In this document: piece after piece, positions 14,248 through 34,812 of the stretch | Position numbering within the stretch: position 1 is the first letter of the stretch | How the letters are laid out: each line of letters starts with the position of its first letter | Assembly (NCBI GenBank): GCA_937136395.1 | Contig: CAKZOI010000021.1 | Location: forward strand, 124,001-188,000 | Length of the DNA: 64,000 nucleotides | From: an uncultured Opitutia bacterium | GTDB lineage: Bacteria; Verrucomicrobiota; Verrucomicrobiia; Opitutales; Coraliomargaritaceae | Direction of reading: 5' to 3' | Translations under genes and position numbers: made by a program | The notes under the pieces: model-generated | The model's database searches: none | The model's input: only the letters and a program-made list of their open reading frames with translations | What the model was told of the DNA's origin: nothing

Positions 14248-14330
14248 GCTCAGGTGGTGGAACGGCAGACACGCCACGTTCAGGTCGTGGTGCCCGCAAG
14301 GGCGTGAGGGTTCAAATCCCTCCCTGAGCA
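14248..14330 (+). tRNA. tRNA-Leu, anticodon CAG
   Basis: 83 nt with a 7-bp acceptor stem (GCTCAGG / CCTGAGC), an anticodon stem CCACG / CGTGG around the loop TTCAGGT (anticodon CAG), a long variable arm as in class II tRNAs, and the T-arm loop segment GGTTCAAATCC. No CCA is encoded. A tyrosine integrase gene follows within 61 bp, and a 20/23 copy of the tRNA 3' end occurs at 48079-48101, so this gene is the apparent integration target of the element to its right. Confidence 0.95.
14308..14330. other. Putative attL core (tRNA-Leu 3' end)
   Basis: T-arm and acceptor 3' half of tRNA-Leu. It matches 48079-48101 at 20 of 23 positions and lies just before the integrase gene. Confidence 0.6.
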
Positions 14331-14354
14331 CTCTATTTTATCGGCTTTTGGCGC

Positions 14355-14390: not shown

Positions 14391-15686
14391 ATGCCGAAAT
14401 CTAAATTCAAAATCTCGCCTTTTACCAATCCTAGTGGAATCACTGCTTGGCGCCTCTCGGGGACGCTGAACGGTAAGCGTATCAGGCAAAACTTCAAAAC
14501 GCGCCCAGAAGCCGTTGCCCAGCGTCAAGAATACGACGTAGAGCATTTGAATGGTGAGCCTGAGGGAAGAACCGTCTGGACGACTCTGACCCCAGAAGAG
14601 AATCGTGACGCAGTCGCTGCCATCAATTCTTTGAAAGCTCGTGGCTCAAAGTGCTCGCTCGCGTTCGCGGTTGATTACCTGTTGCAGCACTATCGGCCAC
14701 CAGACTTGGAGCGGCTCGCTGGCGAAGTGGCGCAAGAATACCTCAATAAGCGCGATCGTGACTGCCTGAAAGGTTTCATTACTGAGTTGCAGTATAAGAC
14801 CATCAAAAACGAAATGCAGTGGTTTAAGCGGTGTTTTGAGGGGCGCTTGATCTCGTCCATTACGGCAGATGATTATCGAGACTACTTGGAAAAGCCAAAG
14901 AATCAGCTGAACAACCGTCGCAAGCTGCCCAAGGTGCTGTCGGCCAAGACGTGGAACAACCGGCGAGGGACTTTGAACACGTTCTGTGTGTTCTGCCTTG
15001 AGCAAAAATACTTGGCCGAAAACCCGATTGCTCGGCTGCCGAAGCATAAGCATCGCAGTCATCGAGGCACTGCCGAAACTTTGAAAGCTGAGGATGCCAT
15101 TGCATTGATGGAATTCTTGGAAACTTATAGTGGATTGACAGAGTCCAAACGCTCGCATCGTCAGAAGCCCGGCTTCCTTGTCCCGTTCTTTGCGCTCACT
15201 TTGTTTGCTGGGATTCGACCCGATTGGAAAAGCGGTGAAATCAGCAAGATCGAGCCAAAGGACATCGATCTGACCACGGGCGTTATTCGTGTTGAACCCG
15301 AAGTCTCGAAGGTGAATGAAAAGAGAACGATCAAGATCCAGCCCAATCTTAAGCTTTGGTTGGAGAAATACCCGATTGACGAGTTTCCTCCGATTCCGCG
15401 CGGGAACATCGACCGCCTCTTGCGGGAAGTTCGCACCAAGTTTTCGATCGGTCACGACGTTTTGCGGCACACCTACATTTCGATGACGGTCGGCGCGTTT
15501 CGCTCGGTGGGTGATGCTGCTTTGCAGGCGGGAAACTCTGAATCTGTCATTAGGAAGCACTACCTCGACTTGAAGAGCACTGAGGAAGCTGACAAATTCT
15601 GGCAAATCGCCCCCGGAGGCCAAACGCAGCCGGCGTTGGAGAAAAAGGACGGGCGTTTCGCGCCAAAGAAGAAAGGAGCCTCCTAG
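14391..15686 (+). CDS. Tyrosine recombinase (integrase)
   Basis: 431 residues. An N-terminal arm-binding-like part (KFKISPFTNPSGITAWRLSG and following) precedes a SAM-like core-binding region around residues 100-215 and a C-terminal catalytic domain. Candidate catalytic residues: Arg in LFAGIRP, the HDVLRHTYIS segment with His-x-x-Arg-His, and Tyr in RKHYLDL. It should integrate and excise the element at the neighbouring tRNA-Leu by site-specific recombination. It is the only gene on the plus strand in this part of the element, and its stop overlaps the stop region of the convergent HEPN-like gene by 4 bp. Confidence 0.92.
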   Translation: MPKSKFKISPFTNPSGITAWRLSGTLNGKRIRQNFKTRPEAVAQRQEYDVEHLNGEPEGRTVWTTLTPEENRDAVAAINSLKARGSKCSLAFAVDYLLQHYRPPDLERLAGEVAQEYLNKRDRDCLKGFITELQYKTIKNEMQWFKRCFEGRLISSITADDYRDYLEKPKNQLNNRRKLPKVLSAKTWNNRRGTLNTFCVFCLEQKYLAENPIARLPKHKHRSHRGTAETLKAEDAIALMEFLETYSGLTESKRSHRQKPGFLVPFFALTLFAGIRPDWKSGEISKIEPKDIDLTTGVIRVEPEVSKVNEKRTIKIQPNLKLWLEKYPIDEFPPIPRGNIDRLLREVRTKFSIGHDVLRHTYISMTVGAFRSVGDAALQAGNSESVIRKHYLDLKSTEEADKFWQIAPGGQTQPALEKKDGRFAPKKKGAS

Positions 15687-17519: not shown

Positions 17520-18440
17520 CTAGGTGATGGTGATGCGTTTCGCGGAAATCGAGGAAGTGAGTTTGATGTCCTCCGTCCAATCGACGGCGAGCACGTCGGA
17601 ACGACTGGATTCTTCGCGGTATGTGCGGACAACATCTACGCCGCCTCTGCGGGTGCGGAAGGTTTTCATGAAGCAGGGATCGTAGAGCGTGGGTGCGTTG
17701 TTGCCGTGGAAGAGGTAGAGTTCACTGCCGACGATGTTCTTCGCGCTCTTCTGTTTTCCCCACTTGTTCTCGTCGTGGGAGAGCACTCCGACTCGGATAT
17801 CCAAGTCGGGATTAAGGAGCAGCGAAGCAAACTGGTTGCGGGTGACTCCGACCGAAGCGGCTCCCGGAAAACGGGCGATGACTTGTGGGTTGTGACGGAT
17901 GGCCGCCCACGCCGGAAGACCGATGACCATACGGTTGGGCATCATGCCTGTGTTGGTTGCCAGAGTTTCGATTTGGGCGTCGATTTCAGCGATCGGGTCT
18001 CTGTCGTTGTCGGCACCGCTCCAAGCGCCGATGCCGCCGACCGCATTGACTGCGCTGGCCACTGCTTTGAAGACTTTAACCTCGTGCGACGCGACTGCCG
18101 AAGAAACCAAAGTGCGGGTCTTCGCTTGCTCGATGCCGAGAGGATCGCCGCGCCCGGATTCGTCGCGCTCGTGGTCGTCGATGGGGATCTCAAGTGCTTG
18201 CGGCAAACAATTGTATGTCGGATCGGTGGCCGCAAAGTCGAGCCGACGCGCGGGGCCGCCCACGGCACGGGACGTATCCAGAATCTGAAAAGCATTCTTG
18301 TCAGAGAAGTCTTTGTATTGGCCAGTGGCGGCTGGAACGATGACTTCGGGCGCGATGAAATCGGCCAAGGAAGAGCGCAAGTCTTGCGCGATGCCTCGGG
18401 CGTAGTTGGTGAGTGTGACGTGGAATTTAGAAGCGGACAT
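17520..18440 (-). CDS. Major capsid protein
   Basis: 306 residues with the composition and segment pattern of Mu-type major head proteins: an N-terminal LRSSLADFIAPEVIVPAATGQYKDF region, a central EIDAQIETLATNTGMMPNRMVIG helix and strand before a GLPAWAAIRHNP segment, and a C-terminal part with WGKQKSAKNIVGSELYLF and strongly charged strands. This belongs with the HK97-fold capsids by context: the gene order terminase, portal, protease, decoration, capsid is the standard head module. It forms the icosahedral shell. No tail or connector gene follows it, which is unusual. Confidence 0.8.
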   Translation of the reverse strand: MSASKFHVTLTNYARGIAQDLRSSLADFIAPEVIVPAATGQYKDFSDKNAFQILDTSRAVGGPARRLDFAATDPTYNCLPQALEIPIDDHERDESGRGDPLGIEQAKTRTLVSSAVASHEVKVFKAVASAVNAVGGIGAWSGADNDRDPIAEIDAQIETLATNTGMMPNRMVIGLPAWAAIRHNPQVIARFPGAASVGVTRNQFASLLLNPDLDIRVGVLSHDENKWGKQKSAKNIVGSELYLFHGNNAPTLYDPCFMKTFRTRRGGVDVVRTYREESSRSDVLAVDWTEDIKLTSSISAKRITIT

Positions 18441-18473
18441 AGTTTGAAAATTTGAAGTGTTTATGGTGGAAGG

Positions 18474-18890
18474 TTATGCGATAGTCAGGGATTCAGGCTT
18501 GGTTGGGATCGCCTCAATCATCTCTCCGGCGACTCCGCTTTCGACTGCGACTGCGCAGATGAATGTTTCGCCTGGGAAATTCTGCTCACTGGCATCGGCA
18601 AAGCCGTATGTTCCATTGTCATCGACCAGACAAAGCTGTCTGCCTGGGCTTGTTTCATCGAGAATCTTGACTTTGAAGGTTCCGGCCACGCCGCCATGAA
18701 AAGGCGCGACAGTGACTATGGCTGGGTCTGCGTGGACGATAACCCCGAATGGCTTTTCGTCTGTCATCCAGAGCTCTGCAGTCGCACCATTCGGTGAAGG
18801 GCCGACGAGGACGGCGCAGCCGATATAGGCAGTCAGGTCAACGTTTGTCTGGAACGGAAGGAGTGCGTTTTCGCGTGTTAGTTTGCTCAT
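18474..18890 (-). CDS. Capsid decoration/cement protein (DUF2190-like)
   Basis: 138 residues, rich in beta-strand and small residues, with a pattern common to head decoration proteins placed between protease and capsid genes: LPFQTNVDLTAYIGCAVL, a segment FGVIVHADPAIVTVAPFHGG and a C-terminal CAVAVESGVAGEMIEAIP. Such proteins stabilise the expanded capsid. The call rests on size, composition and gene order rather than a decisive motif. Confidence 0.6.
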   Translation of the reverse strand: MSKLTRENALLPFQTNVDLTAYIGCAVLVGPSPNGATAELWMTDEKPFGVIVHADPAIVTVAPFHGGVAGTFKVKILDETSPGRQLCLVDDNGTYGFADASEQNFPGETFICAVAVESGVAGEMIEAIPTKPESLTIA

Positions 18891-18931
18891 GTGCTATGAT
18901 GACTAATGGGTGATGAGGGATTGCGGGTGAA

Positions 18932-19978
18932 TTAACGAAAGAGGTCAGGTGCCTCGGTTTGCGCCTTGGCGAAGACGGTTTGAAAATCAGCTTGCGGGTT
19001 GGCTGCGCGGACTTCCGCGAGCTTCTTTTGCTGGAGCTGCATTTTATCGAGCACGCCGCTCTTGGGGTCGTCGCTATCGGTAATCTTGGCTAGGACGGGA
19101 TTGATCGGGAGGGCTTCGAGTGCTTTAAGCGCGGCTGTTTCGTCGCGGATGAGCGAATCTTGCCAGAAGTTCTTGGTGTCGTCGTTGGGAGCGATGCGAC
19201 CTTCTTTGACTGCGGCTTCGACGTGAGCGGAAGCACGCGACTTAACAGCTTCAATTTTCTCGGCTTCGAGGGTATCGACCTGAGATTGAAGCTCGATGAA
19301 TCGGGCTTCGATTGCCTGAGCGACGGATTCATCAGAAGCGTTCACCGAGTCGATGAGCTTAAGGGCGTAAAGTTTGGCTTGTATTGGTTTCATGAAAGAT
19401 GATGGATTAATGACGGTGGGTAGATTAAGGTCTTGCTTTGCAAAGAGAGGCTGGATCGATTTGAAAGCGGCACGGTTGACTAGGCCTCCCATGTTGGTTG
19501 CTGAACCAATCACACGGCCTTCGTCGTCGGGAATGAAGGTAGGCGAAAAGCGGCGAAAGGTTTTGTCCTTTACCGCGGCTTGGCCTGCGCCGCTCCATTC
19601 CACTTTGGCACGGACACCCCCTGTCTTGAGATCGTCACCCGCCCAGTAAAACTCGGTTGGCCATGCGGCGGCTTCGCGGTCTTCATGGTTAAAGTCGAAG
19701 AAAGGTCGATCTTCGCTGCCTTCATTTGCCTTGGTCAGATGGTCTTGTAGGAACTGGTTGAGCGTCTCGGCCGTCGCTGCGTCGACAACGATGTCCAAGC
19801 TAACAGGCTTACCACTGCGCGAGGCATTGATGCGGTGCTTGCCTGGCGGCATATACTGAATGTCGTCAGGACATTCAGAAGTTGATTGGCTGTTTACCAG
19901 TTCGAGGCTGGAGGTAAGCGCGGCTTTGATCGCATCGGGCATACAGCCATGATTGCGCGAAGAAAAAAGCTTCATCAA
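18932..19978 (-). CDS. Mu I-like prohead protease/scaffold
   Basis: 348 residues. The N-terminal half carries RPFFDFNHEDREAAAWP and the region AKVEWSGAGQAAVKDKTFRRFSPTFI, which match Mu-like I proteases; the C-terminal half is helical and charged (from about residue 200) as expected for a scaffold portion. The protein would direct capsid assembly and be cleaved during maturation. It lies between portal and decoration genes in normal head-module order. Confidence 0.78.
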   Translation of the reverse strand: MMKLFSSRNHGCMPDAIKAALTSSLELVNSQSTSECPDDIQYMPPGKHRINASRSGKPVSLDIVVDAATAETLNQFLQDHLTKANEGSEDRPFFDFNHEDREAAAWPTEFYWAGDDLKTGGVRAKVEWSGAGQAAVKDKTFRRFSPTFIPDDEGRVIGSATNMGGLVNRAAFKSIQPLFAKQDLNLPTVINPSSFMKPIQAKLYALKLIDSVNASDESVAQAIEARFIELQSQVDTLEAEKIEAVKSRASAHVEAAVKEGRIAPNDDTKNFWQDSLIRDETAALKALEALPINPVLAKITDSDDPKSGVLDKMQLQQKKLAEVRAANPQADFQTVFAKAQTEAPDLFR

Positions 19979-20008
19979 ACGCAGGGTTTCACTGCGTTTA
20001 ATTCAGTT

Positions 20009-21664
20009 TCACTGTTTGCTCGTGTTTTTCGCCTGAGCACTCACTGAGCAGTCGCAGTTGTGGTGTAAAGGAGGCGGTGTCGTCCAGCCGGAACCGTAAG
20101 CCGTGCCATTGTAGGGAGCGCATTGAGGACAATCACCACCCGACCAGATCAGATCATGCGTGTCTAGGTCTGTATTGGCCAACTGGTCTAAGAAATCGAC
20201 GTAAGCGCTAAGTTTTCGCTCGTTTAGTGATGCTGTGGATTCGCTGGCTCCTTCGACACATTCGGGACAAGTGCACCTGTCTTTTGCGGACGATGGGGGC
20301 AGCGGCTCTCGCAAATCGGCAGGTGCGTCGACCTGCGATTCTGGAGCTGAAGCCGTGGGGTTCGGATTGAGAGTGTGCTTATCGATAGGACTGAACAAAT
20401 CCTCCTCGGGGCCAGGGGCTGGAACTTTGTGGCGGTCATAAAGCCATTGCTTGCTGACGGGCAAAGCCATGTCGCTGAAGAGCAGCTTGTCCCGCTCCAC
20501 CAGCTGTCGGTCTTTCTCCGGGCGATTGAGTTCGACTTCCAGAAAGGGCAATTCGGTTGCTTCTCCCCAGTTCAGTTCGACCAAGCTGTGAATCAGCTGA
20601 CTATTGACCACATCGATGACATAGGTTGCGTAGTTTTCGTATAGATCGAGCTCTACCTCGCGATGCACACTCCCCAAAGCATAAGAACCGGAACCGCCTT
20701 CTTCACTCGTTAACGTCTGGCCGAGAAACAGTAAGTCACACGCGCGATCGGCCAGTGCCATCAAGCGCTCCGTTGGTTCCGACTTCCCCGCAACTCCAGG
20801 AGTGCTTCCGTTCAAGATCTGTAACTCGGTGCCGGCGGGAAACGCTCCCCACGCGGCGGTGCCCATATTGCGCAGCATATCAGAAACCTGGTCGATTTGT
20901 GTTTGCGGTGCATTCGGGTCATAAGTCGCCCAGCGGATCGGCAGACCGAACAGTTCGGCTTTGTGCGCCATCCACTCCCAGCCGAGCATACGCCCCAGCC
21001 ATAAGTGCGCCAGTGCACGAAGTTGCGCCGTCTCTGCGATATGACCAGACTTCGCACGATACACGCCGACCAGAAATTTATGAGGATAGCGGTTGAAAGC
21101 TTTCGGACTGTTAGGGTCTCTGTCGGGAAAGAGCCGTAGTGCATTCGGGTTGCGACTCGATGAGTGAATCTGGTTGCTGGGCTCAAAACCTAAGCAAGTC
21201 CACGGAACGCGCCGTGTCCCTGCGGGGATGTATTTGCCCGCCTGAATAGTCCAATCGATCTCAAGCACAGATACGCCCCGCGCAACTGCATCAAGTAACT
21301 CATACAAAGTGCCGTGGAAGTTGTTCTGCCCTTCCCACGTGGCGGCTTTCTGGTTGTGGATGACATGTTCGACGAACGCGGCTTTCTCAAGAGCCGAAGC
21401 GGTCGGCTCTTTTCCCTTCTCTGTCCATGGCTGGAGATTAAACGGTAGCTTGCAGACAGCTTTCTTGAATTTGTTCAGATTCGAGCGCAACCGTTCCCAC
21501 GTATCTTCCATCGTATTGAAGAGTTCGTTTTGGAGCATTAGATTGCCTCGACCGCCTTCGTCGAGGACCCAGCCGAGGGTATCCGGATCAAAGTCGATGG
21601 GGATTGGTGAAAGTTGCTGATCGCGGACGTGCGGGCGGATGATGGTTCGGTTGGTCTGACTCAT
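20009..21664 (-). CDS. Portal protein (DUF935, Mu gp29-like) with a MuF-like C-terminal motif
   Basis: 551 residues. The body matches the DUF935/Mu gp29 portal family: DTWERLRSNLNKFKKAVCKLPF, GVSVLEIDWTI, WEWMAHKAELFGLPIRWATYD, and GSGSYALGSVHREVE. The portal forms the ring through which DNA enters the head. The C-terminus (about residues 490-550) contains paired cysteines and histidines (SGGDCPQCAPYNG, PPPLHHNCDC), the pattern of the end of Mu gpF/SPP1 gp7 head-morphogenesis proteins, which normally form a separate gene. Start ATG at 21664 overlaps the terminase stop as ATGA, so translation is probably coupled; an alternative start lies 9 bp upstream. Confidence 0.85.
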   Translation of the reverse strand: MSQTNRTIIRPHVRDQQLSPIPIDFDPDTLGWVLDEGGRGNLMLQNELFNTMEDTWERLRSNLNKFKKAVCKLPFNLQPWTEKGKEPTASALEKAAFVEHVIHNQKAATWEGQNNFHGTLYELLDAVARGVSVLEIDWTIQAGKYIPAGTRRVPWTCLGFEPSNQIHSSSRNPNALRLFPDRDPNSPKAFNRYPHKFLVGVYRAKSGHIAETAQLRALAHLWLGRMLGWEWMAHKAELFGLPIRWATYDPNAPQTQIDQVSDMLRNMGTAAWGAFPAGTELQILNGSTPGVAGKSEPTERLMALADRACDLLFLGQTLTSEEGGSGSYALGSVHREVELDLYENYATYVIDVVNSQLIHSLVELNWGEATELPFLEVELNRPEKDRQLVERDKLLFSDMALPVSKQWLYDRHKVPAPGPEEDLFSPIDKHTLNPNPTASAPESQVDAPADLREPLPPSSAKDRCTCPECVEGASESTASLNERKLSAYVDFLDQLANTDLDTHDLIWSGGDCPQCAPYNGTAYGSGWTTPPPLHHNCDCSVSAQAKNTSKQ

Positions 21665-23016
21665 GAGTTCCATGCCTTTCTAAAGCGGGTTTGCAAAGGG
21701 CGGTGGCGACGCCTGTTCGCGCCGATTCTTGGAGGATTGTTTTCTGAAATACCCATGCCCTCGGGTGATCTTTCCGCTGCGTGTAGTGCCAAGGCTAGAG
21801 CCGTGGCGCGGTCGGCATGCCCGTCGCGCGTTCTCGCCGCCATGAATTTGACAAGCCCTTGCTGGGTGACGATGCGCTGAATGCTGGCGAGATCATCGCG
21901 TAGTTTTGGTTGGCTCGGTATGCGAACCGAGCGACTCTGAAATGATTTCTTAGTGCGGCTGAACAACTCCCGCTTTCGCTCATTGGTGAAGTTGACCGCT
22001 TCCAGTTTGAAATCTCCCAGTCGTTTGGCTAAATACTCAGAAACGGGGCCGCCAATACCTGTCGAATCAACTGCGACGAAACGAGCGCGGTTGACTCTCT
22101 CGGAAAGCAGAGCCTCTTGTTCGGGGAAGGGAGTGTTTTCCATCACTTGGATTTCTCGCGTCCAAAGGACACCCGCCACGCGTTCCAAAGTCCATGCGAC
22201 GGTCAGGTCTCTACGCCTGCCGATGTCGATGCCGACAAAGAGCGGGTTCGGCGTTCTTGTTTCCCAAGGGCCAATGGATGCTGCGGGATCTTCCACAGAA
22301 CGGATTAAATCCATGGGAAAGACCTGCGCAGCATGTTCCATGAACTGGCACTCGAACTCCTGTGCCCATCCATCCGCGTCAGCCAAGTTCGCTTTGAGCT
22401 CTTCAATATCTAGTCCAAGACCTTGCTCCACCGCATCGTAAACGCTTGTTTTGTGGCGTTTGAAATCGGGGGCTTCGTTCCACAGCTCGTAGAACTTGTT
22501 GTTCATTCCGGCTGGCGTGGAGATGACACGTAGTTTCAACTCTCCGCGCAGTGGATTGGTGATGATTGGATAGACCGCTCGCCAGATTTCCTCCGGGTTC
22601 TCGTGAAAGGCGAATTCATCGAGCACAAGATTGGCTGAGTAGCCCCGAGCGGTCGATGCGTTGGCCGGAAGCGCGAGAATCCTTGCGCCATTTGGAAAGC
22701 GGATTTGCGAAGCCTTGGTTTCGGCAACGAAGGGTTTCCCGGTTTCGTGACTGATCGCTTGGCAGAAGATTTGCCCCACGCGGTGAACTTTTTCCATGAA
22801 CTCCAAAGCTTGCCGCTCGCCAGCGGAGAGAATGATCCAATCGGAACCACTTTGAATGGCATCGGACACAACCTCAAAAGCGGCTGCAAGTGAGCCGCCG
22901 ATTTGACGCGATTTTAGCCAGATCTTGAATCGAGATGTATCCAGAACCCAACTACGTTGATACGGCAGGAGTAGATCGAAAGGAGATGCCGAAAGCTTTT
23001 TTCTTTTAGCTGCCAT
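21661..23016 (-). CDS. Terminase large subunit (Mu gp28-like)
   Basis: 451 residues with an ATPase domain then a nuclease domain. ATPase: a degenerate Walker A KSRQIGGS at residues 35-42 and Walker B LVLDEFAF at 130-137 (Asp133, Glu134). Nuclease (RNase H fold): VGIDIGRRRDLTVAW, VAVDSTGIGG and DGHADRATALALAL supply the acidic metal ligands. It cuts concatemeric DNA and drives it into the prohead through the portal. The small subunit gene overlaps upstream by 11 bp and the portal gene downstream by 4 bp. Confidence 0.92.
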   Translation of the reverse strand: MAAKRKKLSASPFDLLLPYQRSWVLDTSRFKIWLKSRQIGGSLAAAFEVVSDAIQSGSDWIILSAGERQALEFMEKVHRVGQIFCQAISHETGKPFVAETKASQIRFPNGARILALPANASTARGYSANLVLDEFAFHENPEEIWRAVYPIITNPLRGELKLRVISTPAGMNNKFYELWNEAPDFKRHKTSVYDAVEQGLGLDIEELKANLADADGWAQEFECQFMEHAAQVFPMDLIRSVEDPAASIGPWETRTPNPLFVGIDIGRRRDLTVAWTLERVAGVLWTREIQVMENTPFPEQEALLSERVNRARFVAVDSTGIGGPVSEYLAKRLGDFKLEAVNFTNERKRELFSRTKKSFQSRSVRIPSQPKLRDDLASIQRIVTQQGLVKFMAARTRDGHADRATALALALHAAERSPEGMGISENNPPRIGANRRRHRPLQTRFRKAWNS

Positions 23017-23533
23017 CTGCGTCGGGTTTTTCAGGAGCGGCTCCGAGTTTCTGGCGCCAGTCCGCCAAAATCTCCTTTTCGTTTTTAGCCGAGATGTTGA
23101 CGTTGTTCTGAACCAATGCCTGTGGCTTGTCGGCGAAGACTTCCGGTTTCAGGCTCTTGAGCATGAAGATCAAACAGGCATCGGAGTATTTGCGCTTGTT
23201 GCCACAGTGGTTGCCTTTGACATCGAAGACAGGTTCCTCCCAGCCGTTGATGGCACGTCGCGCCAGTTCACGTTCGGCTTCTTCAATGCGCTTGGCGTTG
23301 CGAACTTTGTCGCGTTGCATCTGTGCGTCTTTGAATTTGTGCGCCAGCTCGGGACGGCGGGAAAGTTCGAGGTAGAACTGACTTTTACCGATACCCTCTT
23401 TTTCGATGGCCGGGTGTGTATCGCTTCCGTGGATGATGCTCTGAACCGTTCGTTCGAAAAGCGTGGTTGAGAATTTGCGCCTAGTCGCGAGGACGGATTT
23501 TGCAGGAGCTGATTTGGATGTTGGTTGAGGCAC
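23006..23533 (-). CDS. Terminase small subunit-like protein
   Basis: 175 residues, basic, with an HTH-like N-terminal region (HPAIEKEGIGKSQFYLELSRR, a pattern seen in small terminases), a helical middle (KRIEEAERELARRAINGWEEP) and YSDACLIFMLKSLKPEVF, which is common in phage terminase small subunits. It would recognise the packaging site and recruit the large subunit, whose gene it overlaps by 11 bp. The region directly upstream is a long G-rich stretch without genes, which could hold its binding site. Confidence 0.72.
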   Translation of the reverse strand: MPQPTSKSAPAKSVLATRRKFSTTLFERTVQSIIHGSDTHPAIEKEGIGKSQFYLELSRRPELAHKFKDAQMQRDKVRNAKRIEEAERELARRAINGWEEPVFDVKGNHCGNKRKYSDACLIFMLKSLKPEVFADKPQALVQNNVNISAKNEKEILADWRQKLGAAPEKPDADGS

Positions 23534-31108: not shown

Positions 31109-31771
31109 TCAGAAAGGACACTCGGCGTCTGAATCGACGGCGGGATTCCATGCTTGCTGCGGTGCTTGTGGCTGACTCTGCGGCGGCGTTTGAGGCGTTG
31201 CGGGTGCCAGACCTTGCGGCGGCAGGCTGGGCTGCTGATAGCTGTTAGCGGCTGCGGCGGTGTTCTGCGGCGGTGCTGCTTGCTGTGTAGCAGGTGCGGA
31301 AGCCTGTGTGTTCGGACTTGTGGCGAAAGCGGTGATAGGAATCACCTGCGCTTTGAGTTGATCCATGACGGGCGCAATTCCGATCAGGTTTGCGTAGGTC
31401 TTGCTGCCGTCCCGGCTTTGCTTGTGCGAGACGGTGATCATCGCGCCTTGCGCTTTGAGTTCGCAGTAGTCCCATCCGTATTTGGGTGGATGACCGAGCC
31501 AGCTGGTCAGGAATTTGAAGAGATTACTCTTCGGGGAGCCGCTGATACGAAACTCAAAGGATTGCACCAGATGTGGCTGGCCGTCCTGCCCCTTGAATCC
31601 GAATAGGAAGCGGGTGACGTCGAGATTCTCCTTTTCCTGAGGGTTCTCGAATTTAGGACGCTCAACTCCAAACTGGTCTTGAGCGTCGATACATGTGGCG
31701 ATATAGGTTCCTGCTGGAGCCAACGCGCTGATTTCGAATCCGTTGGATTCGGGTTGTTTTAACTGTGCCAT
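31109..31771 (-). CDS. Single-stranded DNA-binding-like protein
   Basis: 220 residues. An OB-fold-like first part of about 140 residues (APAGTYIATCIDAQDQFGVERPKF, FEFRISGSPKSNLFKFLTSWLG, GAMITVSHKQ) is followed by a long Gln/Pro/Ala-rich disordered tail and the acidic tip DSDAECPF. A disordered linker ending in acidic residues plus Phe is the arrangement of bacterial SSB proteins, whose tip recruits partner enzymes. As first gene of the replication operon it likely coats single-stranded DNA. Confidence 0.7.
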   Translation of the reverse strand: MAQLKQPESNGFEISALAPAGTYIATCIDAQDQFGVERPKFENPQEKENLDVTRFLFGFKGQDGQPHLVQSFEFRISGSPKSNLFKFLTSWLGHPPKYGWDYCELKAQGAMITVSHKQSRDGSKTYANLIGIAPVMDQLKAQVIPITAFATSPNTQASAPATQQAAPPQNTAAAANSYQQPSLPPQGLAPATPQTPPQSQPQAPQQAWNPAVDSDAECPF

Positions 31772-31907: not shown

Positions 31908-34031
31908 CTAAATTTTTTCGCCAGCGAGCGAGCCAGAGGCTCGTGTGCTCCAGGCGATTTCTTCGCCTGGCAGGTAATGGAGGATTTCGCCTTTTCCCAG
32001 ACTCGCTTCCAGATGTTTAGCAAAGACTGGATCGGCTGCCGCAATTTCCTTTATCGTGCGGCGCATAGACACGGCAACTTTGTCGCGCTGGCGTTTTTTG
32101 TCGTCCTGAGCTTTGCGGGGACGACCGCCGATGCCTGTCCGCCGACCCAGTTCGGCGTTAATCTCAATGGCTTCCTCTGCCAGCTTGTCTGCTTTGGCAT
32201 GGTCGCCTCTTTCTCGAGCATCCTGAGCGGCTTCAATTTTTTCAACCATTGTTTCGCGATACTTGCGGAGAGCGGAAGCGGTTGTGTGGTCTCCAAGATC
32301 AGACACCTTTTCGCCCTGAGAAATTTCATAGCCTTCCGCAACGTCGGCAATGTCCACGACACCCGATTCGATTTCTGTGACCAGATCGACGGTTAGATCG
32401 CCAATCACTTCATAGACAGGAAAACGCTGATTGGGGCGCGCCAGAAGATACTGTATGTATTCGCAGCCCTTCTGGTTGTTTTGAATCAGTCGAGCATCAC
32501 CGCCTTTGAAACGAAACTCCCAGACACTGCCTCGTTTCCAGAAGAAGTTCTTTGGCTTTTCGTTTTCTCCGACAGCTGGCAATCGAAGGGAATTGCCCAT
32601 CTGGTGGATGGCGTAGAGCAAGCTGCCGTCAGGAAGCGTCCTCAATCGCAGTGCTTTACTGTGCAGCACTGTCAATTTGTCGATGGCTTCTCCGACTTCG
32701 TTGGCATGCCTTTTATACAGCTCGAAGACTCTGGCTGGACTGCCATGAGAACGTTCTGGCAGAGCGGCCAAGGCACGCAATACAGCTGGGTATTGCGAAG
32801 CGAGTTCGATCGGGGATTTGAGTCGAGCCACAGTGTTAGCTCGGTTGATGTAGTTCGACGCAAGAATTTTATCGTCTTCGTTGGAGCGTTGCTCCGTGAA
32901 TGCGTCGATCTTGTAGCGGTCGAGTGGATCATGCTCTTCCGCATCAGCGGCCAACATGGCCAAACGCCTATCCAAACACTGCGAGCACGTGCCGCAATGG
33001 GTGACGGTATTTTTGCGTTCCCATGTGTGCGCACAACTCACCGACTCGGCGATGCTGCTCCCGAATCCGGCATCCACGATGACCTTGATCACCTCGGCCT
33101 TAGTCTTCCAAAGAAAGGGATTCTCGACTGTAAATGATTGCTCCCCGATGAGTGAAAAGAGCTTTTCAAAGCCGACTAAAACTCGCGGATGAGTGGTTCG
33201 TGTCGCACGGCTCCCCACGACTTGGGCGCAAATAGGGAGATTGAGACTGATCACGCCGTTTTCGTAGAAACGTAAATTGTCTAGGCGCAGCATTTTCGCG
33301 AGAGCGACACCGAAGCTGGCAAAAAGAAACGAACGCGTCCGCTGCGTGTATTCACGAGCGGCCTTGTTTTGCAGGCTGGCGCGAATCTTAACCGACTGCG
33401 GTTCGAGTTTGGTATCGGCCCGGTCTCGAATCGTCCGAATCAAGGTGTTCAGAATGCGGTTGTTCTTGGCGGTCGGTCTATGGGAGACGAGCAGCGTTTT
33501 GCGCTTCTGGTTGATTGTTTCCTCGATGGCACCTGCCAGCGAGTCCAAGCCTCCTGAAAACATAACGACTTGTTGCACATCAATCGCGGGTTCCACCGGA
33601 TCGGATATGTCGAGATAAGTTTGCAGGGCGGGTGGCCGTTTGGCCTGAGTAAACTCAAAGGTATAATAGTCGTCTGAAATGAAGTTGAGTAGATCCGTCA
33701 GGCAGTTGTTTACCTCCGGGCTTTCCCAAAGGGCTTTGCATCGAACAGGTATGCGGAAGTGCAGATTGCGTCGCCACTTGCCGCCGAAACTGTCTGCGTC
33801 TTTGAAGCTACGCTTCGCTTTTTGATCGGCCGCATAGACATAGGCCGCGATTTCGATCAAATCATGGAATGGGCGTGGGATGTCGGTGTAGAGCGGCTGA
33901 TGAACATCTTCGATTTTGAGCGTGATATTTTCATGCGCTTGTCCCGCCCAAAGCTGAAGTTTGATCACATCTTCTTGAACTTCAGTGGTGGCTTGGGCGT
34001 GCTCGCCGCAATAGATGTTAAAGTCACGCAT
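31908..34031 (-). CDS. QueC-like (QatC-like) protein with C-terminal extension
   Basis: 707 residues. A helical N-terminal region of about 150 residues precedes a QueC-type ATP-dependent domain: PP-loop FSGGLDSLAG at residues 158-167 and the zinc cysteines C333, C346, C349 and C352 in SCAHTW...HCGTCSQC. QueC makes preQ0 from CDG, but a long multidomain version beside a small partner is typical of defence proteins such as QatC rather than queuosine synthesis. A charged region from about residue 580 ends in a module with GGRPRKAQDDKKRQRDKV, then DPVFAKHLEASLGKGEILHY, like C-terminal tails of some bacterial regulatory proteins. No other queuosine gene is present. Overlaps the partner gene by 8 bp. 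Confidence 0.8.
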   Translation of the reverse strand: MRDFNIYCGEHAQATTEVQEDVIKLQLWAGQAHENITLKIEDVHQPLYTDIPRPFHDLIEIAAYVYAADQKAKRSFKDADSFGGKWRRNLHFRIPVRCKALWESPEVNNCLTDLLNFISDDYYTFEFTQAKRPPALQTYLDISDPVEPAIDVQQVVMFSGGLDSLAGAIEETINQKRKTLLVSHRPTAKNNRILNTLIRTIRDRADTKLEPQSVKIRASLQNKAAREYTQRTRSFLFASFGVALAKMLRLDNLRFYENGVISLNLPICAQVVGSRATRTTHPRVLVGFEKLFSLIGEQSFTVENPFLWKTKAEVIKVIVDAGFGSSIAESVSCAHTWERKNTVTHCGTCSQCLDRRLAMLAADAEEHDPLDRYKIDAFTEQRSNEDDKILASNYINRANTVARLKSPIELASQYPAVLRALAALPERSHGSPARVFELYKRHANEVGEAIDKLTVLHSKALRLRTLPDGSLLYAIHQMGNSLRLPAVGENEKPKNFFWKRGSVWEFRFKGGDARLIQNNQKGCEYIQYLLARPNQRFPVYEVIGDLTVDLVTEIESGVVDIADVAEGYEISQGEKVSDLGDHTTASALRKYRETMVEKIEAAQDARERGDHAKADKLAEEAIEINAELGRRTGIGGRPRKAQDDKKRQRDKVAVSMRRTIKEIAAADPVFAKHLEASLGKGEILHYLPGEEIAWSTRASGSLAGEKI

Positions 34032-34812
34032 CGTTGGTTTCCGCTCTCATTTTCAATTCGGCTCGCATTTTGGTCATCGCGTAGGCACCGAAACCTTTGG
34101 TTTTTCTCGCTTGGATGTCTCCATCATCGAGATAGAAATTCTTGGAAAACCACATGCCGCTGAAACGTTCGACGATTTCGGCGGCCTCATTGCAATGCGT
34201 CTTCATGGCTTGCTCGAACTGATCCATTCGGTTCACGGTGGCGAACGGTTGATCTGCGCCGACTTGTGTCCCGATGTGTTGTGACAAAAAGTAGCTAAGC
34301 GAGTCGTTGGTTGCTTTGCCAAAGAACGCGCGGGAGAGCCTGCCGAACTCGGAAGGCTTACCGAGATCTGCCAAAGCGGAAAGGACTTCGTCGCCAGTTG
34401 CGGGGAACATGGAGCCAAACCGCTCATCCAGATGCGACATCACCGCGCTCGATAAGGCTCCGTGAGCCAGCTCGTTGAAGTCACTACGGATGCCCTTGGT
34501 CTCTACGATCCGGTCGACTGCTTCAGTCAGGGCGATGCCGACATCGATCACGCTGGGCTTTTCTGGTAAATTGATGCCGACTGTTTTGAGGTGTTCTAAC
34601 GGATCGCTCGACTTGGCGGCGACTGCCAACTCCTTCATCAGTTCGACAGTCTCCAGGAATCCTTTGTCGTTTTGGATGGTTTCAAAAGCTGTGTCTGCCG
34701 CCTGAGAAGTGGCCGCCGCGATGTCTTCCACATCCGCTTCGTTGGCGATCAACTCGATCACGTTTTTCCAAGCCCTTGTTTTCGGCAGGAGTCCTAATCT
34801 GACATGCCCCAT
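34024..34812 (-). CDS. Partner of the QueC-like protein, possible modification target
   Basis: 262 residues starting MGHVRLGLLPKTRAWKNVIE, otherwise helical and without a known catalytic motif. Stop and downstream start overlap (ATGCGTGA), so the pair is coupled. QatB, the gene before QatC in Qat, is likewise a protein of about this size starting Met-Gly. For QueC-like enzymes of defence systems, attachment of a deazaguanine to a partner N-terminus has been proposed; here that is only an analogy. The second half carries repeated helical segments (FGRLSRAFFGKATNDSLSYF). Upstream 120 bp should hold the promoter of the pair. Confidence 0.6.
   Translation of the reverse strand: MGHVRLGLLPKTRAWKNVIELIANEADVEDIAAATSQAADTAFETIQNDKGFLETVELMKELAVAAKSSDPLEHLKTVGINLPEKPSVIDVGIALTEAVDRIVETKGIRSDFNELAHGALSSAVMSHLDERFGSMFPATGDEVLSALADLGKPSEFGRLSRAFFGKATNDSLSYFLSQHIGTQVGADQPFATVNRMDQFEQAMKTHCNEAAEIVERFSGMWFSKNFYLDDGDIQARKTKGFGAYAMTKMRAELKMRAETNDA

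What the first reader, a model, noticed from the sequence alone, without database searches (positions are those of the whole stretch)
31908..34812. Two-gene QueC-like system with a Met-Gly partner as mobile-element cargo
The 707-residue protein has an intact PP-loop (SGGLDS) and all four zinc cysteines of QueC but is far longer, and is coupled by an 8-bp overlap to a 262-residue protein starting MGHVRLG. No queuosine genes lie nearby. Known: Qat uses QatB-QatC with a QueC-like QatC, and QueC-like enzymes in defence systems have been proposed to attach deazaguanine to partner proteins. Here QatA-like ATPase and QatD-like TatD nuclease are missing. A stand-alone two-gene version, with its own C-terminal module, could be an undescribed nucleobase-conjugation or defence system.
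Basis: partly seen in the sequence, partly recalled or inferred. Interest (0 to 1): 0.8.

Follow-up and report, generated by a model that had tools for sequence, protein, structure and literature searches.

The report
Phage-borne two-gene Qat-like module
A prophage in this bacterium carries a fixed pair of genes that belongs to a large, apparently undescribed, mostly virus-carried branch of the Qat anti-phage family, in which the modifying enzyme is fused to exchangeable DNA-binding or DNA-cutting domains and its partner always begins Met-Gly-His.

Summary
QC (31908-34031, minus, 707 aa) has the PP-loop, the four cysteines and an 8-bp overlap with QB (34024-34812, 262 aa, MGHVRLG). QC is a QatC relative: PADLOC QatC 6e-60, solved QatC 9vlk 1e-29, but below the NCBIfam QatC cut-off. 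QB matches no family model and is only remotely QatB-like. The pair is not an isolated oddity. Scans found 181 genome and 133 viral-contig relatives. In the loci read (80 of each, plus a few more), QB almost always directly precedes QC, and no QatA or QatD homologue lies within 8 kb. QC sequences form one clade (100/99) apart from qatABCD. The partner's N-terminus is near invariant: Gly2 in 126 of 126 distinct sequences, His3 in 124. QC's extra C-terminus is swapped repeatedly: a shared strand/coil module (105 of 138, including the window), OmpR-type winged helices, or a DpnII/MboI-type nuclease. In the window and most relatives the pair sits in prophages, near the integrase or early replication genes. 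Best reading: a prophage-carried QatBC-type defence module whose DNA-acting domain is fused to QC. Defence, the chemistry and DNA binding are inferred. New variant of a known kind.

The parts
34024..34812 (-). QB: 262-aa QatB-like partner, MGHVRLGLLPKTRAW N-terminus, all-alpha
   Evidence: ORF; 145-row family with G2 and H3 near invariant; AlphaFold2 pLDDT 88, pTM 0.87, N-terminal ~14 residues unstructured; remote QatB similarity by hhalign, score 38.9 against at most 17.6 in 100 column shuffles
34804..34812 (-). Met-Gly-His start of QB, proposed modified N-terminus after Met removal
   Evidence: Gly2 126/126 and His3 124/126 distinct homologues
31908..34031 (-). QC: 707-aa QatC-type enzyme with C-terminal module; overlaps QB by 8 bp
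   Evidence: PADLOC QatC 5.9e-60; PDB 9vlk QatC 1.3e-29 over residues 57-363; NF041925 220 bits, cut-off 280
32943..34031 (-). QatC N-terminal extension and QueC-like core (residues 1-363)
33540..33557 (-). PP-loop SGGLDS (residues 159-164)
   Evidence: S159, G160, G161, D163, S164 in 138/138
33189..33203 (-). QatC-type T-R-T-T-H motif (residues 277-281), counterpart of P. aeruginosa QatC T278/T280
   Evidence: R278, T279, T280, H281 138/138; T277 131 T and 7 S; alignment to 9vlk
32976..33035 (-). Zinc-site cysteines C333, C346, C349, C352
   Evidence: 138/138
31947..32543 (-). C-terminal module: strands, HTH-like helices, coiled-coil hairpin, long helix, wing; putative winged-helix DNA-binding domain
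   Evidence: shared by 105/138 relatives; model pLDDT 83; the same module ends actinobacterial ATPase regulators; weak profile match to a PF00486-type variant
31109..31771 (-). Next gene in the phage gene run, possible SSB (tail ...DAECPF); context only
   Evidence: ORF; no family hit; SSB reading from the tail sequence only
14391..15686 (+). Prophage integrase beside tRNA-Leu (14248-14331); context
   Evidence: phrog_1 5e-17, tRNA
17520..23533 (-). Prophage head genes: major head protein, head protease, portal, large and small terminase; context

Best explanation
QB-QC is a prophage-carried, stand-alone QatB-QatC-type anti-phage module that would guard the lysogen against other phages. Proposed working: (1) QB and QC are translated together and form a complex, QB docking on the QatC-type surface. 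(2) QB's initiator Met is removed, exposing Gly2-His3, and the short flexible N-terminus enters QC's PP-loop active site. (3) QC uses ATP to attach a small molecule to Gly2; this may be a deazaguanine or another group. (4) The modified or released complex acts on DNA through QC's C-terminal domain: a winged-helix-like module here and in most relatives, other winged helices elsewhere, and a DpnII/MboI-type nuclease in Leptospira. This domain would take the place of the DNA-binding QatA and/or the nuclease QatD of qatABCD. Shown here: gene pair, homology, invariant residues, N-terminal conservation, prophage context, domain swapping. Inferred: complex formation, modification, DNA binding, defence.
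For: QatC homology and conservation of the QatC-specific motifs, with catalytic and zinc residues invariant in 138 sequences. QB directly upstream of QC in 153 of 162 loci, with short overlaps of 11, 4 or 8 bp most common. MGH start near invariant in an unstructured tail. QB-QatB remote profile similarity. No QatA/QatD within 8 kb, in line with the report that QatBC alone protects against lambda (PMC13279940). Prophage genes in the window and phage markers in 42/65 genome loci and 63/72 viral loci of at least 9 kb. C-terminal variants hit PF00486 Trans_reg_C (1e-10) and PF18742 REase DpnII-MboI (1.6e-10). A canonical Qat operon with a TatD-like domain fused to the QatC C-terminus exists (L225). 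Stenotrophomonas acidaminiphila has both canonical QatC and this type.
Against: No assay was possible. Location in an early or integration region fits a phage regulator as well as defence. Identification of the window's own C-terminal module as a winged helix is weak: Foldseek found nothing at E below 0.9 and the profile match is marginal. The attached group is unknown; Tepidicella xavieri carries the pair but shows no QueD or QueC hit.
Confidence: 0.5

Rival explanations
1. Lysogeny or phage gene control: QB-QC is a prophage regulator. QC's winged-helix domain binds phage DNA, and QatC-type modification of QB is the switch between lysogeny and lytic growth.
For: Conserved place between integrase and replication genes or next to the integrase. 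LexA-type HTH protein just upstream of QB in 28 loci. OmpR-type and related winged helices at the C-terminus. The coil module also ends actinobacterial ATPase regulators.
Against: Very similar QB-QC cores occur with different C-terminal domains, one of them a nuclease, on a plasmid and in loci of 12 kb or more without phage markers (18 genome loci). The nearest experimentally tested relatives are defence proteins (PMC13279940).
Confidence: 0.22
2. Counter-defence: the phage uses QB-QC to interfere with host systems that depend on a QueC-like enzyme, such as type IV CBASS or qatABCD, for example by titrating substrate or partner.
For: Phage-borne; homologous to host immune proteins; a host can hold canonical Qat and this type together.
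Against: Catalytic residues and the partner's N-terminus are invariant, which a decoy would not need; canonical qat is rare in the hosts sampled (6 of 388 phylum genomes over the cut-off).
Confidence: 0.1
3. A decayed or partial ordinary qatABCD system that lost qatA and qatD in this genome.
For: Same enzyme family; many QatC genes lack adjacent qatA/qatD (PMC13329287).
Against: QC belongs to a separate clade (100/99) in which the two-gene state is the rule, with intact frames and invariant active sites.
Confidence: 0.04
4. Nucleobase biosynthesis: QC makes preQ0 or a similar base for tRNA or phage DNA modification.
For: QueC homology.
Against: QatC-type TRTTH in place of the QueC Tyr/Asp substrate motif; no queuosine-pathway genes among the recurring neighbour clusters that were identified; E. 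coli QatC cannot replace QueC (PMC13329287).
Confidence: 0.04

Closest known systems
qatABCD anti-phage system, QatB-QatC pair (P. aeruginosa and E. coli; PDB 9zee/9zef, 9vlk/9vll)
   Same: QatC homology with PP-loop, TRTxH motif, zinc cysteines and N-terminal extension; upstream helical partner with Met-Gly start and flexible N-terminus; QatBC alone protects against lambda
   Different: No QatA/QatD; separate QatC clade; partner starts MGHxRLGxLPxTRxW with a tail of about 14 residues, not MGTS with a 30-90-residue tail; QC carries an extra exchangeable C-terminal domain; mostly prophage-borne
Type IV CBASS Cap9 with CD-NTase (N-terminal deazaguanylation)
   Same: QueC-fold enzyme with a partner protein whose N-terminal glycine is, or is proposed to be, the substrate
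   Different: Cap9 keeps the QueC Tyr/Asp pocket and acts on a CD-NTase; QB is not a CD-NTase
[quoted passage not shown]
   Same: PP-loop ATPase fold and zinc cysteines
   Different: 707 against about 220 aa; substrate motif replaced; no Q-pathway neighbours
C-terminal module of actinobacterial ATPase regulators (e.g. Nonomuraea L235, Streptomyces L237)
   Same: The coil-containing module shared with QC's C-terminus (26-33% identity)
   Different: There fused to an ATPase-type regulator, not to a QatC

Membership tests
Qat (qatABCD) system | QatC: QueC-like core with N-terminal extension | tested here: met
   PADLOC QatC 5.9e-60; 9vlk 1.3e-29
Qat (qatABCD) system | QatC equivalog cut-off (NF041925, 280 bits) | tested here: not met
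   220.5 bits
Qat (qatABCD) system | QatC motifs: SGGxDS, RxRxxxF/Y, ExG, T-R-T-x-H-P, TK, CGxC zinc site | tested here: met
   D69(x)4R and WxR also present, with a spacing 4 residues longer
Qat (qatABCD) system | QatB partner, NCBIfam NF041924 | tested here: not met
   no match
Qat (qatABCD) system | QatB by remote homology | tested here: inconclusive
   hhalign 38.9 (E 8e-5, probability 61%) against at most 17.6 in 100 shuffles; no Foldseek hit, but QatB may be absent from that library
Qat (qatABCD) system | QatB N-terminal glycine motif | tested here: met
   MG in all, but MGH instead of MGTS
Qat (qatABCD) system | QatA KAP-type ATPase in the operon | tested here: not met
   phmmer with three QatA found none within 8 kb of any relative
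Qat (qatABCD) system | QatD TatD nuclease in the operon | tested here: not met
   phmmer with three QatD found none near the relatives
Qat (qatABCD) system | Anti-phage activity | not testable with these tools
   needs plaque assays
Type IV CBASS | CD-NTase partner and Cap9-type Tyr/Asp substrate pocket | tested here: not met
   QB has no CD-NTase match; TRTTH motif in QC
QueC / queuosine pathway | QueC equivalog and Q-pathway neighbours | tested here: not met
   TIGR00364 21.9 bits, cut-off 150; own QueC and QueD on contig 40
Winged-helix DNA-binding proteins (C-terminal module) | Trans_reg_C or wHTH domain match | tested here: inconclusive
   Variant C-termini match PF00486 at 1e-9 to 1e-10; the window's own module has only YfeC-like 0.017, score 22.8 against 15.5 in shuffles to the PF00486-type variant, and a few OmpR-type DNA-binding domains among Foldseek hits with E of 1.3 or more

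The most novel reading that the evidence does not exclude
A large, mostly virus-borne class of immune or regulatory modules in which a QatC-type enzyme modifies the N-terminal Gly of a dedicated MGH partner to control an exchangeable DNA-binding or DNA-cutting domain fused to the enzyme itself.
Probability: 0.35. Interest if true: 0.75.

Novelty: new variant of a known kind. Interest (0 to 1): 0.6.

Why it matters
Published work leaves open what QatC attaches to QatB and how the modified complex stops phage. A natural two-gene version with its output domain fused to the enzyme, an almost invariant MGH substrate end and a compact partner may be the easiest form in which to find the modification and its target. 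It would also show that temperate phages widely carry Qat-type chemistry.

Tried and rejected
Viral-contig scan with the QB protein alone found nothing, and an alignment of six QB sequences was too diverged to search; a QC alignment worked. Foldseek of the QB model against PDB and BFVD gave no match. QatB is in the PDB by sequence, but its entries may post-date the fold library, so this is not evidence against QatB kinship. Foldseek of the C-terminal module gave nothing significant. Attachment repeats and an empty site: no repeat of the tRNA-Leu end to the right of the element, and synteny with relatives stops at about 13.0 kb, so the prophage ends stay unset. Rejected: DUF1771 and YfeC hits in QC as families (below cut-off; DUF1771 lies on the coiled coil). 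Rejected: canonical qat remnant, because of the separate clade. One shuffle in each of two control runs gave an isolated score above 130; the QB-QatB control did not repeat it in 100 new shuffles.

Full report
Observation. Both frames are as described: QC 31908-34031 and QB 34024-34812, minus strand, 8 bp shared. QC hits PADLOC QatC over residues 10-389 (5.9e-60) and the solved QatC chains 9vlk and 9zee (1.3e-29 and 5.6e-23), but scores 220 bits against a cut-off of 280 for the NCBIfam QatC equivalog. QB has no meaningful Pfam, PADLOC or NCBIfam match. The extra part of QC is what follows about residue 480.

Setting. The window holds a prophage: integrase beside tRNA-Leu; major head protein, head protease, portal, both terminase subunits, primase and DNA polymerase A; resolvase and exonuclease. 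QB-QC lie at the start of the leftward phage gene run. The outer ends could not be fixed.

A family of two-gene units. Four other genomes of the phylum hold the pair, and a Leptospira noguchii plasmid has a diverged one, MGHERLGILPKTRSW plus a 621-aa QC. A QC profile found 181 relatives among bacterial genomes and 133 in viral contigs; 80 of each were read. They come from Pseudomonadota, Desulfobacterota, Planctomycetota, Verrucomicrobiota, Acidobacteriota, Myxococcota and others. QB precedes QC directly in 153 of 162 loci, usually overlapping by 11, 4 or 8 bp. Searches with three QatA and three QatD proteins found neither near any of them, whereas the canonical plasmid operons read here mostly had both genes. 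All QC members form one branch (100/99) separate from canonical QatC. Two rows first labelled canonical fall inside it: L221, whose partner begins MGHIRLG, and L010, a plasmid copy next to insertion sequences.

Active site and substrate end. PP-loop, R231, R233, E257, G259, R278-T279-T280-H281-P282, T310 and the four cysteines are the same in all 138 distinct sequences. The threonines that in P. aeruginosa QatC replace the deazaguanine-holding Tyr/Asp (PMC13279940) are kept, T277 being Ser in 7. The QB start is Met-Gly-His: Gly2 126/126, His3 124/126, then xRLGxLPxTRxW. The start was chosen by looking for Met-Gly near the aligned start, so the Gly count is somewhat favoured by the choice, but His3 was not part of it. 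QB is predicted all-helical with an unstructured first 14 residues, a much shorter tail than the 30-90 residues of QatB. Profile comparison supports remote QatB kinship (38.9 against at most 17.6 in shuffles); fold searches did not help.

The C-terminus changes. 105 of 138 QC share the window's module; the rest fall into several unrelated groups. One group matches Trans_reg_C, the OmpR-type winged helix (1e-9 to 1e-10); the Leptospira form matches the DpnII/MboI nuclease family (1.6e-10). On the tree of QC cores the C-terminal type changes at least 13 times (6 changes of the main module are forced by well-supported branches). The window's module is predicted as strands, a helix pair, a coiled-coil hairpin, a long helix and a wing. 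The same module ends ATPase regulators of Actinobacteria. I read it as a winged helix with an inserted hairpin, which is likely but not proven. A Bradyrhizobium canonical operon has a TatD-like domain fused at the same end of QatC.

Phage context. Large serine recombinases occur near 88 of 162 loci, along with Sak4, DUF669, helicase, primase and sigma-factor genes. Of loci of at least 9 kb, 42/65 genomic and 63/72 viral ones have such markers. Viral-contig membership partly reflects how such contigs are called, so the genomic figure is the fairer one. Eighteen genomic loci of 12 kb or more have none, so the unit also lives outside recognisable prophages.

Function. QatB and QatC alone protect against lambda, and the QatB glycine motif is essential (PMC13279940). 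By analogy QB Gly2 is modified by QC, and the fused C-terminal domain supplies the DNA-directed step. Whether deazaguanine is attached is open: 23 of 26 hosts have QueD, but Tepidicella xavieri has neither a QueD nor a QueC hit (draft genome). The main rival is a lysogeny switch, which the place and the winged helices allow.

Novelty. No held paper found describes a two-gene, phage-borne QatBC clade or the C-terminal fusions. PMC13329287 reports that only a third of the QatC cluster is next to qatA or qatD, so stand-alone QatC genes were implicitly known. I therefore call it a new variant of a known kind.

Noticed in passing
L225:2818-4947 (Bradyrhizobium ottawaense pBoOM27): QatC of 709 aa in a canonical-type Qat operon, with a TatD-like nuclease fused at its C-terminus (identity read by eye).
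   Followed up: partly
L234 (Listeria phage LM 4-11-1): A 206-aa protein starting MGTN directly precedes a 400-aa QatC-like protein: a second minimal phage Qat type with a different partner.
   Followed up: partly
L063 / G404 (Tepidicella xavieri): Carries the two-gene unit but no QueD or QueC hit in the draft genome, although Tgt is present.
   Followed up: partly
L061 and L214 (Stenotrophomonas acidaminiphila, G403): One genome holds both a canonical QatC locus and the phage-type unit.
   Followed up: no
L191 (G142, Verrucomicrobiota): A 187-aa MGTS-starting partner with a body resembling QB: a possible link between QatB and QB.
   Followed up: partly
L050:15685-17409 (Brevifollis gellanilyticus): A Lhr-type helicase matching DpdJ/BrxHI models lies about 6 kb from the pair.
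   Followed up: no
L018, L019, L020: Broken copies of QB without an intact QC nearby.
   Followed up: no
window 31109-31771: Unassigned phage gene with a Gln/Pro-rich tail ending DAECPF, like a single-stranded-DNA-binding protein.
   Followed up: no
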